In this document: piece by piece, positions 35,627-40,128 of the stretch
Position numbering within the stretch: the first letter of the stretch is position 1
Layout of the letters: every line of letters starts with the position of its first letter
Source: Bdellovibrio sp.
GTDB lineage: Bacteria > Bdellovibrionota > Bdellovibrionia > Bdellovibrionales > Bdellovibrionaceae
NCBI GenBank assembly: GCA_024711265.1
Contig: JANJTG010000101.1
Coordinates: 1 to 40,128, forward strand
Length of the DNA: 40,128 nt
Reading direction: 5' to 3'
The notes under the pieces: generated by a model
The model's input: only the letters and a program-made list of their open reading frames with translations
Told to the model about the DNA's origin: nothing
The model's database searches: none
Translations under genes and position numbers: made by a program

Positions 35627-35845
35627 TTGAATGCCTTCAAAAAAGAGTTTCCCAACATTCCCGAGATTCAACTTGAAGATAACTTCAAAGATTTAAACTT
35701 TGATTCTCTTTTGCGCGTTCGCCTTCTTTTTATGTTGGAAGAAACATTCAACGCGGACTTCTCCGCACTGAATCTTCACGAATGCAACTCCCTTGCTGAA
35801 GTCATAGATCGTGTATTAACTCAAATCGGTAAAGCAGAGGGCTAA
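35627..35845 (+). CDS. Acyl carrier protein-like (ACP-4)
   Basis: TTG start; LEDNFKDLNFDSLLRVRLLFMLEETFNADFSALNLHECNSLAEVIDRVL; stop/start overlap TAATG with the FkbH gene. Confidence 0.85.
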   Translation: MNAFKKEFPNIPEIQLEDNFKDLNFDSLLRVRLLFMLEETFNADFSALNLHECNSLAEVIDRVLTQIGKAEG

Positions 35846-37674
35846 TGCTGTCCGGACAGGACCTGATTGAGCATATTCAGGAACTTATCAAAAACTCCCA
35901 ATCTGGCGAGGCCCTGATGGCTTTACGCCGAGGGGTTGAAATTAATCACACTCTGATCGAGAACCCCTCCGTCTATTTCTCTCTTGCCAAGCTCTACTCT
36001 CAGATCAACATTAAGTCCAAAAACAAGTTAAAGATCGTATTAGGCGGTGAGCAGTCACTGGATCACGTGGGGCAACTCCTTAAGTTCTTCTTGGGTCTTT
36101 GGGAGTTTGATGTCGAAATCTACATTAGTGCCTTCGGCACATTCGACAACGAAATTCACAACCCTCAAAGTGAGCTCTATCGCTTTCAACCTGACATTAT
36201 TTGGATTTTCTCGGGATTCCGTGACACTTGGTTCACAACTGCCGAGGAGGCGTTGTCCTACACGCGGCAAAGATGGGACGTGATTCACAAATATAGTCAC
36301 GCTCACATCATCCAGAATAATATAGATCTTCCCGCAGAAAGACCACGAGGGCATATCGAGGTAATCTCAAAGGACCTCCCTTCTGTCGAAATGGGACACT
36401 TCAACAATCAGCTTGCCTCACTTAAAATGCCAGGGATCTCAATCTTTGATCTGGATTGGGTTTCATCCCTTATCGGAAAATATGCCTGGAGCGACGATCG
36501 CCTCTGGTTTCACTCTAAACATGGCATATCTCCGTCGGCTCTTCCTTTGCTGACTTATCATGGGGCTCGTTTCATTGAAGCCCTGCAGGGACGAGCCAAA
36601 AGGGTTCTGATTTTAGACCTTGATAATACACTCTGGGGCGGAGTACTTGGAGATGATGGCGTTGACGGAATTCAGATTGGTCTTGGTGAGCCACAAGGCG
36701 AAGCCTACTATCACTTTCAAAAGTATCTTGCCGCCCTCAAAGAAAGTGGGATTCTACTTGTCATTTGCAGCAAAAACGAAGAAGTCTTCGTTCGAGAGGC
36801 CTTCCGCCAACACGCCGACATGCCGCTGAAGTGGAAAGACTTCGCCGCCGTCGTGGCAAATTGGGAAAACAAACCCAGGAACATTCAGACTCTGGCCGAA
36901 ACACTGGGACTTGATCCATCTTGTTTTGTCTTTATTGACGACCAACCTGCGGAGCGAGCCTTTGTACGACAAGAGTTTCCAACTCTTGCCGTGCCGGAAC
37001 TTCCTGAAGATCCATCGCAATACCAAAGAGTGCTCGACTCCTACAGATACTTTGAGACCGCAACCCTCACAGAGGAAGATCACCATCGCACTGAAATGTA
37101 TCAACAGCTCAGCAAGGTCAACAGCCAACTTCGAACGCATCCGAACTTGGACGAGTTTTTAAAAAGCCTTGCCATGAGATCGCACCATAGCGAATTTGAT
37201 CGGGCCCACTTGCAAAGAATCACTCAGCTTATAAACAAGAGCAATCAGTTTAATCTAACCGGCTTGCGTATGAAGGAAGCTGAAGTTGTTGCCATGATGG
37301 GAAATCCCCAAATCTATACACAGTATTTTAATCTACAGGACAAGTTTACGGATCATGGGCTAGTTGCTCTTGTAATGTTAGAAAAGCGAGATCAGGAACT
37401 CTTCATACTCAACTGGCTGATGAGCTGTCGGATCCTGGGAAGAGGACTGGAGAAGTTCGTTCAAAACTGGATTTACAAGACAGCAAAACAAATCGGAGTT
37501 GCACAAATTCGGGGGCGATACGTTCCGTCGGGTCGCAACAAACTGGTTGAAAAGCACTACCCCAACTTGGGCTACTCAGCCATACCAGCTCAATTTCCCG
37601 AGGACAACGAGTGGTACCTCGATCTGAATTCGACTGTGCAAACTCAAACCGTCTATATTCAGGATCAACCATGA
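35845..37674 (+). CDS. FkbH-like HAD-superfamily protein (glyceryl-ACP synthase type)
   Basis: 609 aa; RVLILDLDNTLWGGVLGDDGVDGIQIG, LLVICSKNEEVFVREAF, FVFIDDQPAERAFVRQEFP, C-terminal GNAT-like RSHHSEFDRAHLQRITQLINKSNQFNLTG. Confidence 0.92.
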   Translation: MLSGQDLIEHIQELIKNSQSGEALMALRRGVEINHTLIENPSVYFSLAKLYSQINIKSKNKLKIVLGGEQSLDHVGQLLKFFLGLWEFDVEIYISAFGTFDNEIHNPQSELYRFQPDIIWIFSGFRDTWFTTAEEALSYTRQRWDVIHKYSHAHIIQNNIDLPAERPRGHIEVISKDLPSVEMGHFNNQLASLKMPGISIFDLDWVSSLIGKYAWSDDRLWFHSKHGISPSALPLLTYHGARFIEALQGRAKRVLILDLDNTLWGGVLGDDGVDGIQIGLGEPQGEAYYHFQKYLAALKESGILLVICSKNEEVFVREAFRQHADMPLKWKDFAAVVANWENKPRNIQTLAETLGLDPSCFVFIDDQPAERAFVRQEFPTLAVPELPEDPSQYQRVLDSYRYFETATLTEEDHHRTEMYQQLSKVNSQLRTHPNLDEFLKSLAMRSHHSEFDRAHLQRITQLINKSNQFNLTGLRMKEAEVVAMMGNPQIYTQYFNLQDKFTDHGLVALVMLEKRDQELFILNWLMSCRILGRGLEKFVQNWIYKTAKQIGVAQIRGRYVPSGRNKLVEKHYPNLGYSAIPAQFPEDNEWYLDLNSTVQTQTVYIQDQP

Positions 37675-37922
37675 CTTCAACGCCAGATGTCTCCCAGCAA
37701 GTTCGCCGTATCCTGGCCGATGAATTGGGGATCAATATATCTTATGTCACAGACAGCGGTGGTTTGCGCTCCATAAAAGGGTGGACCTCTTTGACTCATG
37801 TTCGCATTATCACGGGTCTTGAAAAATATTTTCAGATCACCTTTTCAAATTCCGAACTGGTGGAAATGACAACGGTTCAAAAAATCACTCACGCTGTCGA
37901 AAAAAAACTGGGGCAAAAATGA
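37671..37922 (+). CDS. Acyl carrier protein-like (ACP-5)
   Basis: ATG at 37671 overlapping the FkbH stop (ATGA); SIKGWTSLTHVRIITGLEKYFQITFSNSELVEMTTVQKI with TSL in place of DSL. The ORF-track start at 37611 is too early. Confidence 0.82.
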   Translation: MTSTPDVSQQVRRILADELGINISYVTDSGGLRSIKGWTSLTHVRIITGLEKYFQITFSNSELVEMTTVQKITHAVEKKLGQK

Positions 37923-39085: not shown

Positions 39086-39089
39086 CTAT

Positions 39090-40128
39090 ATGATTTTGAC
39101 CTATCCATTTTTTTGGGCCTTTATCTGGATTGTGGTCTTTACCTATGGTCTGCTTCAAAAAGCTCTCCACAGAACCCTTATTCTCCTGGTTTGTACGCTG
39201 TTTATCTATTTCTCTGAATTTCTTTGGGTGGATTTTTTAGTTCTTTTTTTAACGACTCTATTCTCATTTTTTTCCTTGAAACACTTACGCAACAGAGGCC
39301 CTGGGAAATGGTTGATCCCGATTCTTATTGCCCTCCCTTTCTTATTTTTCAAACTGCAGGGCCTTATAACCCATCAAGACATCGCAATCCCTTTGGGCCT
39401 TTCTTACGTCACGTTCACCCTTTTGGCTTATGCCATCGATACCATCAAGAATCGCAGCCATCCTAGTACCAACCTGGGAACCTTTCTTTCTTCGGCTCTC
39501 TTTTTTTCAGCTCTCCCCTCAGGACCAATTCATTCTCTGCCACAGACCGAAAGGCAAATCGCAGAAGCCAAGCCTTGGAATCAGCGCAATCTTCTGCTGG
39601 GTGTGATTCTTATTGCCAACGGTCTGTTTAAAAAGAACATCGGCGATTTAATATCTCTGGTGGCTCTTCAATCGAAAGCTGATATTCTAGAAATGTCCGT
39701 ACTAGACCGCTGGGTTTCCTTTCTGTCTCTTGGAGCGGAGTTTTATGCCGATTTTTCGGGGTACACGGATATGGCACTCGGATTTGCCCTTTTATTCGGA
39801 GTTCATTTACCTGAAAACTTTGCTCTGCCCTTTCTCACAACCAATATGGCTGACTTCTGGTCACGCTGGCATATGAGCCTGACAGGCTGGGCACGAACCT
39901 ATCTCTTCTTTCCCACTATGGCCAAGTCTCTTGATCTTTTCGGTCGAGAGAATGTTCGATTTGTCACATTCATTGCCACTTTCGCCACCATGCTATTTAT
40001 TGGACTCTGGCATGATATTTCGATCAGCTTTTTTGTTTGGGCCGGATACAATACTTTACTCATTCTGTTCACACCGTGGCTGGATGCCTTCTTAAGTCGA
40101 CTCACTCGCTACTCAAAAGGGATCCTAC
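39090..40128 (+). CDS. MBOAT family O-acyltransferase, 3' truncated by window edge
   Basis: Not in the ORF track because it runs off the end; reading from ATG 39090 gives FYADFSGYTDMALGFALLFGVHLPENFALPFLTTNMADFWSRWHMSLTGWARTYLFFP and FATMLFIGLWHDISISFFVWAGYN. Confidence 0.9.
   Translation, partial: MILTYPFFWAFIWIVVFTYGLLQKALHRTLILLVCTLFIYFSEFLWVDFLVLFLTTLFSFFSLKHLRNRGPGKWLIPILIALPFLFFKLQGLITHQDIAIPLGLSYVTFTLLAYAIDTIKNRSHPSTNLGTFLSSALFFSALPSGPIHSLPQTERQIAEAKPWNQRNLLLGVILIANGLFKKNIGDLISLVALQSKADILEMSVLDRWVSFLSLGAEFYADFSGYTDMALGFALLFGVHLPENFALPFLTTNMADFWSRWHMSLTGWARTYLFFPTMAKSLDLFGRENVRFVTFIATFATMLFIGLWHDISISFFVWAGYNTLLILFTPWLDAFLSRLTRYSKGIL

What the first reader, a model, noticed from the sequence alone, without database searches (positions are those of the whole stretch)
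35627..40128. tRNA-synthetase-derived aminoacyl loader encoded between a carrier protein and an MBOAT
The 37919-39085 protein keeps class II aaRS motif 2 and 3-like segments and candidate Cys-Glu-Cys zinc ligands, as in the amino acid:[carrier protein] ligases (SerRS homologs known to aminoacylate carrier proteins rather than tRNA). Its start overlaps the ACP-5 stop by ATGA, and an MBOAT begins 5 bp after its stop. The physiological acceptor of aa:CP ligases has been unclear as far as I know. Here the order ACP, ligase, MBOAT suggests the aminoacyl group is exported and esterified, replacing DltA with an aaRS-fold enzyme.
Basis: partly seen in the sequence, partly recalled or inferred. Interest (0 to 1): 0.87.

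Follow-up and report, generated by a model that had tools for sequence, protein, structure and literature searches.

The report
Synthetase-derived loader in Dlt-like operon
A protein descended from the enzymes that charge tRNA sits in an operon between a carrier protein and a membrane acyltransferase, and comparison of about a hundred genomes suggests it feeds amino acids into a cell-surface decoration machine like the teichoic-acid alanylation (Dlt) system, a role for this orphan enzyme family that can now be tested.

Summary
ORF 37919-39085 is a class II aaRS-fold protein: its AlphaFold model (pLDDT 91) matches glycine:[carrier protein] ligase best, and Zn ligands (C205/E250/C353), motif 2 and motif 3 residues are invariant. 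It overlaps ACP-5 by ATGA and is followed 4 bp later by an MBOAT that the contig end truncates. Ligases of this family sit beside an MBOAT in 66 of 83 loci examined and in 10 of 15 ligase-bearing Bdellovibrionota genomes; the window's ligase lies in a 98/98-supported clade, all MBOAT-linked. In 64 of those 66 loci I found a 33-38 aa DltX-like microprotein (one TM helix, C-terminal acyl-shuttle Tyr), usually with an SGNH/DltD-like gene. In one Paenibacillaceae family 97 of 106 genomes carry the ligase and only 3-4 a canonical DltA. So an aaRS-fold ligase very probably replaces DltA in Dlt-type envelope aminoacylation systems. Not shown: the amino acid, the acceptor, any enzyme activity, and the missing end of the window's MBOAT, which resembles AlgI/PatA-type enzymes carrying their own shuttle motif rather than DltB. 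aa:CP ligases are described as having no known biological role; this offers a testable one.

The parts
37671..37922 (+). ACP-5: carrier protein (83 aa), phosphopantetheine Ser40 at 37788-37790
   Evidence: PF00550 29.2 bits over cut-off 20.8; Ser40 invariant in 13 carrier proteins
37919..39085 (+). aaRS-fold amino acid:[carrier protein] ligase-like protein (388 aa), with an extra N-terminal beta-alpha-beta-beta-alpha domain (about residues 1-67)
   Evidence: phmmer, profile and Foldseek best match to Bll0957 structures; AF2 pLDDT 91.2
38531..38533 (+). Zn ligand Cys205 (aligned with Bll0957 Cys131; structure numbering from memory)
   Evidence: alignments; invariant
38666..38668 (+). Zn ligand Glu250 (aligned with Bll0957 Glu176)
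   Evidence: alignments; invariant
38975..38977 (+). Zn ligand Cys353 (aligned with Bll0957 Cys279); motif 3 Arg360 follows
   Evidence: alignments; invariant
39090..40127 (+). MBOAT-2, first 346 residues; cut off by the contig end, so the C-terminus and any shuttle motif or SGNH neighbour are not visible
   Evidence: PF03062 48.7 bits, DltB model TIGR04091 136 bits (cut-off 375); 15 of 15 complete close relatives end FxYxxF
35627..35845 (+). ACP-4, second carrier protein upstream
   Evidence: PF00550 39.2 bits
35845..37674 (+). FkbH-like protein, which in known systems loads glyceryl from 1,3-bisphosphoglycerate on an ACP
   Evidence: TIGR01686 287 bits, cut-off 147
32753..34147 (-). MBOAT-1, complete, ends with its own shuttle motif FVYLQF; neighbour, not shown to act with the ligase
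   Evidence: PF03062 46.9 bits; C-terminus seen
31642..32802 (-). SGNH/DltD-like candidate (GNSD near the N-terminus, DILHL near the C-terminus), overlaps the MBOAT-1 end
   Evidence: no Pfam or NCBIfam hit; motifs read

Best explanation
The 37919-39085 protein activates an amino acid with ATP on a class II aaRS core and puts it as a thioester on the phosphopantetheine arm of ACP-5. The adjacent MBOAT takes the aminoacyl group from ACP-5 at the inner face of the membrane and passes it through a Tyr acyl-shuttle (a DltX-like microprotein in most relatives; in the window probably the MBOAT's own C-terminus, beyond the contig end). An SGNH/DltD-like protein then transfers it to a hydroxyl of an envelope polymer or glycolipid. 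It is a Dlt-type pathway whose loader is an aaRS-fold ligase instead of DltA. Shown by sequence and structure prediction: the fold, active-site residues, carrier Ser, conserved operon partners, shuttle microproteins, rarity of DltA. Inferred: aminoacylation of ACP-5, transfer by the MBOAT, the acceptor, and the amino acid (probably small, Gly/Ala/Ser, by analogy with studied aa:CP ligases).
For: Ligase. Carrier Ser invariant. Ligase-MBOAT linkage in 66 of 83 loci; in 10 of 15 ligase-bearing Bdellovibrionota genomes, read through loci. Phylogeny: the window ligase is in a 98/98 clade of 8, all MBOAT-linked. DltX-like microprotein in 64 of 66 MBOAT-linked loci within 4 kb; one match in 914 kb of flanks (the C-terminus of window MBOAT-1); 0.2 expected in shuffles. 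SGNH triad Ser64/Asp278/His281 invariant in 24 DltD-like neighbours. The MBOAT profile hits only DltB structures, 230 bits. L121 has ligase-ACP-MBOAT ending FYYARF plus a DltD-like gene. DltA over cut-off in 0 of 17 ligase genomes and 3 of 106 in a family where 97 of 106 carry the ligase. One carrier-ligase fusion, P0006 (its carrier domain is just under the Pfam cut-off). Dlt mechanism with DltX Tyr: PMC12148441.
Against: In the window the MBOAT is cut off; its SGNH partner and shuttle are not seen. MBOAT-2 groups weakly (SH-aLRT 82) with self-shuttle MBOATs, a type shown to use acetyl-CoA in PatA, rather than with the DltB-like partners of its ligase clade. Some relatives of the ligase lie in clusters without an MBOAT (L116, L117, L119, L120, Anaerolineales, Zixibacteria, Lachnospiraceae), so the family has other uses. 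L115's MBOAT lacks the catalytic His. The window also holds KS, FabZ-like, FkbH and acyl-ligase genes that look like metabolite or lipid assembly. Most of the 66 linked loci are Paenibacillus, one lineage.
Confidence: 0.68

Rival explanations
1. The ligase and ACP-5 supply an aminoacyl unit to a small-molecule or lipid assembly line encoded in the same cluster (KS, FabZ-like, MaoC-SDR, AMP-binding ligase, FkbH), and the MBOAT acylates that product rather than an envelope polymer.
For: The window has a FabF-like KS, a FabZ-like dehydratase, MaoC-SDR fusion, acyl ligase, OYE reductase, FkbH and three ACPs. Distant ligase relatives sit with KAS III, a ferritin-like protein, ACPs, a reductase and AMP-ligase and no MBOAT (L116, L117).
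Against: The window ligase belongs to the MBOAT-linked clade, not the KAS III-linked one; none of the other MBOAT-linked loci examined has these extra genes.
Confidence: 0.17
2. MBOAT-2 is an ordinary acyl-CoA-dependent MBOAT-SGNH transferase that lies next to the ACP-5/ligase pair without sharing its substrate.
For: MBOAT-2 groups with AlgI/PatA-type self-shuttle MBOATs, and PatA uses acetyl-CoA (PMC12148441).
Against: Only 4 bp separate the genes; the ligase clade is MBOAT-linked throughout; L121 has the same ligase-ACP-self-shuttle MBOAT order in another family.
Confidence: 0.08
3. The protein is a reduced seryl-tRNA synthetase that still charges tRNA.
For: It is homologous to archaeal type-2 SerRS (3w3s, 35 bits) and has an extra N-terminal domain.
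Against: The genome has a normal SerRS on another contig (551 bits, cut-off 302); profile and structure match aa:CP ligases better; carrier protein neighbour in nearly all loci.
Confidence: 0.02

Closest known systems
Amino acid:[carrier protein] ligases (Bll0957 of Bradyrhizobium; 3mey, 4h2s, 4h2w)
   Same: Class II SerRS-like core, three Zn ligands, motif 2 and 3, carrier protein encoded next door
   Different: About 22% identity; extra N-terminal domain of about 70-90 residues; linked to an MBOAT/SGNH/shuttle module; far below the NCBIfam equivalog cut-off (122 vs 357 bits)
Dlt D-alanylation system (DltA-DltC-DltB-DltX-DltD)
   Same: Carrier protein, DltB-like MBOAT, DltX-like microprotein ending in FxYxxF or a shortened form, DltD-like SGNH in the related loci
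   Different: No DltA (ANL-type adenylation enzyme); loader is an aaRS-fold ligase; found in Gram-negative Bdellovibrionota as well; amino acid and acceptor unknown
MBOAT-SGNH transferases PatA/PatB, AlgI-type
   Same: Window MBOAT-1, L121 MBOAT and the nearest relatives of MBOAT-2 carry their own C-terminal FxYxxF shuttle motif
   Different: PatA uses acetyl-CoA; here a carrier protein and an amino-acid ligase are encoded beside the MBOAT
AlmEFG glycine transfer to Vibrio lipid A (from general knowledge)
   Same: Gram-negative, carrier-protein-bound amino acid, envelope acceptor
   Different: AlmE is a DltA-like adenylation enzyme and AlmG is not an MBOAT

Membership tests
amino acid:[carrier protein] ligase | Class II aaRS catalytic fold closest to Bll0957 | tested here: met
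   Foldseek best hits 4h2w/4h2s E 8e-25, TM 0.90 by target; profile 210 bits
amino acid:[carrier protein] ligase | Cys-Glu-Cys Zn ligands and motif 2/3 Arg | tested here: met
   C205/E250/C353, R231, R360 invariant; these alone do not separate it from type-2 SerRS
amino acid:[carrier protein] ligase | No tRNA-binding N-terminal domain | tested here: inconclusive
   Full SerRS N-domain is absent, but a small N-terminal domain (residues 1-67) of unknown role is present
amino acid:[carrier protein] ligase | Cognate carrier protein gene adjacent | tested here: met
   ACP-5 overlaps by ATGA; carriers seen beside the ligase in most relatives read
amino acid:[carrier protein] ligase | Score over the curated NF005479 equivalog cut-off | tested here: not met
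   122 bits against 357; Paenibacillus 157 and Bacteriovorax 109 also fail. A homologous branch, not an equivalog
amino acid:[carrier protein] ligase | ATP-dependent aminoacylation of the carrier protein, no tRNA charging | not testable with these tools
   needs biochemistry
Dlt system | DltA adenylation enzyme | tested here: not met
   The window's AMP-binding ORF scores 88 bits vs cut-off 560; 0 of 17 ligase genomes have DltA
Dlt system | DltB-like MBOAT fed by a carrier protein | tested here: inconclusive
   MBOAT and carrier adjacent; DltB model 136 bits, below cut-off 375; window MBOAT-2 nearer AlgI/PatA type
Dlt system | DltX acyl-shuttle microprotein | tested here: inconclusive
   Present in 64 of 66 related loci; in the window the place lies beyond the contig end
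Dlt system | DltD-like SGNH protein | tested here: inconclusive
   Triad invariant in related loci; structure match to DltD weak; window has one candidate beside MBOAT-1, none visible beside MBOAT-2
Dlt system | D-alanine esters on teichoic acid | not testable with these tools
   needs chemistry; Gram-negative hosts have no teichoic acid

The most novel reading that the evidence does not exclude
A widespread class of envelope aminoacylation systems, in Gram-negative and Gram-positive bacteria, uses an aaRS-derived ligase in place of DltA with its own DltX-type microproteins. It would give the orphan aa:CP ligases a physiological role and probably puts an amino acid other than D-Ala (Gly, L-Ala or Ser) on a surface polymer.
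Probability: 0.65. Interest if true: 0.88.

Novelty: new variant of a known kind. Interest (0 to 1): 0.8.

Why it matters
aa:CP ligases have been described since 2010, and a 2022 review says the biological role of attaching amino acids to carrier proteins remains unknown (PMC9437257). The conserved Dlt-like context gives a concrete, testable role. It would also show that the tRNA-charging fold was recruited to decorate the cell surface, substituting for an unrelated adenylating enzyme, and it identifies tiny shuttle proteins that gene finders are likely to miss. In one Paenibacillaceae family the system is nearly universal, so it can be tested in cultivable strains.

Tried and rejected
tRNA charging: rejected as main role because the genome has a separate SerRS. 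Finding the rest of MBOAT-2: the last 151 bases match no other contig of the genome and no other MBOAT piece is detected. Pfam gives no hit for the microproteins, so they rest on position, TM and motif. The SGNH model (pLDDT 78) gives only weak Foldseek hits to SGNH hydrolases and DltD; sequence triad used instead. NCBIfam DltD hit only 24 bits for one SGNH. Paper searches for aa:CP ligase together with MBOAT/Dlt found nothing; the original 2010 paper is not held. L075 (Acidobacteriota) has MBOAT-ACP-ligase but no shuttle was found, and its MBOAT match is weak, so it is a weak case.

Full report
1. Observation. The gene order claimed is in the sequence: ACP-4 (35627-35845), FkbH (35845-37674), ACP-5 (37671-37922), the aaRS-like protein (37919-39085, 388 aa) and an MBOAT from 39090 to the end. 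The start of the aaRS-like gene overlaps the ACP-5 stop by ATGA; the MBOAT starts 4 bases after its stop. The window is one whole contig (C131) of a 3.36 Mb, 552-contig assembly, and the MBOAT runs off its end; the last 151 bases match nowhere else in the genome.

2. What the protein is. phmmer against PDB sequences gives Bll0957, a carrier-protein ligase, at 1.4e-19, ahead of type-2 SerRS at 5.6e-8. A 29-sequence profile gives 210 bits against 164 and 121. The AlphaFold model (pLDDT 91.2, pTM 0.89) matches glycine:[carrier protein] ligase solved with its carrier best (4h2w/4h2s, E 8e-25, TM 0.90 by target). C205, E250, C353, R231, E233, E359 and R360 are invariant; in the alignment the three Zn ligands fall on Bll0957 Cys131, Glu176 and Cys279 (that numbering is from memory). 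It differs in having a small beta-alpha-beta-beta-alpha N-terminal domain, shared by most of its 390-aa relatives, and in missing the NCBIfam equivalog cut-off (122 vs 357 bits). ACP-5 keeps the phosphopantetheine Ser. One relative, P0006, has a carrier-like domain fused to the ligase (PF00550 19.2 bits, just under the 20.8 cut-off). The genome has a separate normal SerRS.

3. Context elsewhere. A scan of one genome per species found 418 relatives, of which 80 loci were fetched. With the window and two loci from related genomes, 66 of 83 ligase loci carry an MBOAT nearby. In Paenibacillus the order is carrier - ligase - SGNH - microprotein - MBOAT. In Bacteriovorax and Halobacteriovorax SGNH - MBOAT - microprotein - carrier run together, with the ligase next to them on the same or opposite strand. 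In the window's phylum 15 of 379 genomes have the ligase; 10 of these have an MBOAT beside it. The other five do not, three of them in a KAS III / ferritin-like / ACP / reductase cluster. None of 23 other genomes of the window's genus has the ligase, so it was probably acquired.

4. The microproteins. The paper on PatA/PatB (PMC12148441) explains that in Dlt the aminoacyl group goes from the carrier DltC through DltB to a Tyr in the C-terminal FXYXXF of the microprotein DltX and then to DltD, and that other MBOATs carry this motif at their own C-terminus. Looking for this, I found ORFs of 33-38 aa in the small gaps, e.g. MAPIARKILEVILYTAMLITVLIYFTGKGLFIYEGF (Paenibacillus) and MLKEFGYLKIAFMIIMLIMIIITGESHFGFQYEF (Bacteriovorax). 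Known B. thuringiensis DltX ends TFIYNEF (PMC5541007). With a fixed rule (25-60 aa, hydrophobic stretch, end F-x-Y-x(1,2)-[FQ]) they occur in 64 of 66 MBOAT-linked loci within 4 kb, with one match in 914 kb of flanking DNA (the C-terminus of window MBOAT-1) and 0.2 expected in shuffles. The rule was written after seeing the first examples and allows the shortened Bdellovibrionota ends (FQYEF, FQYVQ). Pfam does not recognise the ones tested. The SGNH neighbours keep Ser64, Asp278 and His281 in all 24 aligned. Three more distant partners (L115, L121, L122) have Gly-Ser-Cys at the nucleophile block.

5. DltA. None of 17 ligase-bearing genomes has a DltA over the curated cut-off, while B. subtilis and L. 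lactis controls do. In the Paenibacillaceae family of L009, 97 of 106 genomes have the ligase and 3, or 4 with one just under the cut-off, have DltA; those four also have the ligase, so it is not strict exclusion.

6. Phylogeny. In a tree of 32 ligases the window's protein falls in a clade of 8 (98/98), all Bdellovibrionota and all MBOAT-linked; MBOAT linkage needs 4 changes on the tree against 11 with shuffled labels. Several branches are long, so exact order inside the clade is unsure.

7. The window's own MBOAT. MBOAT-2 is nearest to MBOATs of 450-540 aa; all 15 complete ones checked end in FxYxxF. In an MBOAT tree it groups weakly (82) with these rather than with the DltB-type partners of its ligase clade. 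L121, from another family, has ligase - ACP - self-shuttle MBOAT (ends FYYARF) - DltD-like gene, so this combination exists elsewhere. MBOAT-1 in the window also ends in a shuttle motif (FVYLQF) and overlaps an SGNH-like gene. So the window probably holds a self-shuttle variant, with the SGNH of MBOAT-2 beyond the contig end. This is the weakest link of the case.

8. Mechanism and verdict. Best reading: the ligase loads an amino acid on ACP-5, the MBOAT and a Tyr shuttle carry it across the membrane, and an SGNH protein esterifies it to an envelope acceptor. Loading, transfer, amino acid and acceptor are inferred. The rival that the aminoacyl unit enters a metabolite or lipid made by the KS/FabZ/FkbH genes next door is not excluded. 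[quoted passage not shown] most subscription papers are not in that library. It works like a Dlt system but is not filed as one, since DltA is tested and absent. Hence new variant of a known kind, with high interest.

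Noticed in passing
window 8945-10171 (-): A second tRNA-synthetase paralog: EpmA/GenX (EF-P lysine ligase) at 295 bits, just over its cut-off of 287, with an N-terminal extension of about 95 residues.
   Followed up: partly
window 35627-37674 (+): ACP-4 and FkbH directly upstream suggest a glyceryl-carrier donor made beside the aminoacyl-carrier donor; two MBOATs and three ACPs in one cluster could mean several acyl groups for one acceptor.
   Followed up: no
window 31642-34147 (-): Overlapping MBOAT-1 (ends FVYLQF) and an SGNH-like protein without any Pfam or NCBIfam hit form a complete MBOAT-SGNH pair next to ACP and FabZ-like genes.
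   Followed up: partly
L116, L117, L003: A separate ligase clade without MBOAT sits with a KAS III, ACPs, an encapsulin-cargo/ferritin-like or diiron-type protein, a reductase and an AMP-ligase: a different biosynthetic cluster that I could not name.
   Followed up: partly
L121 7819-8721, L122 6099-7616, L115 6199-7458: DltD/SGNH-like partners in these loci have Gly-Ser-Cys where others have Gly-Asn-Ser or Gly-Ser-Ser, possibly a Cys nucleophile.
   Followed up: no
window 19427-20980 and 26175-27641 (+): Two related proteins of about 500 aa (E 6e-10) without any known domain lie in and near the cluster.
   Followed up: no
L056 12038-12148: A Paenibacillaceae locus with the DltX-like microprotein but no MBOAT detected by my search; may be a sequence error or a lost gene.
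   Followed up: no
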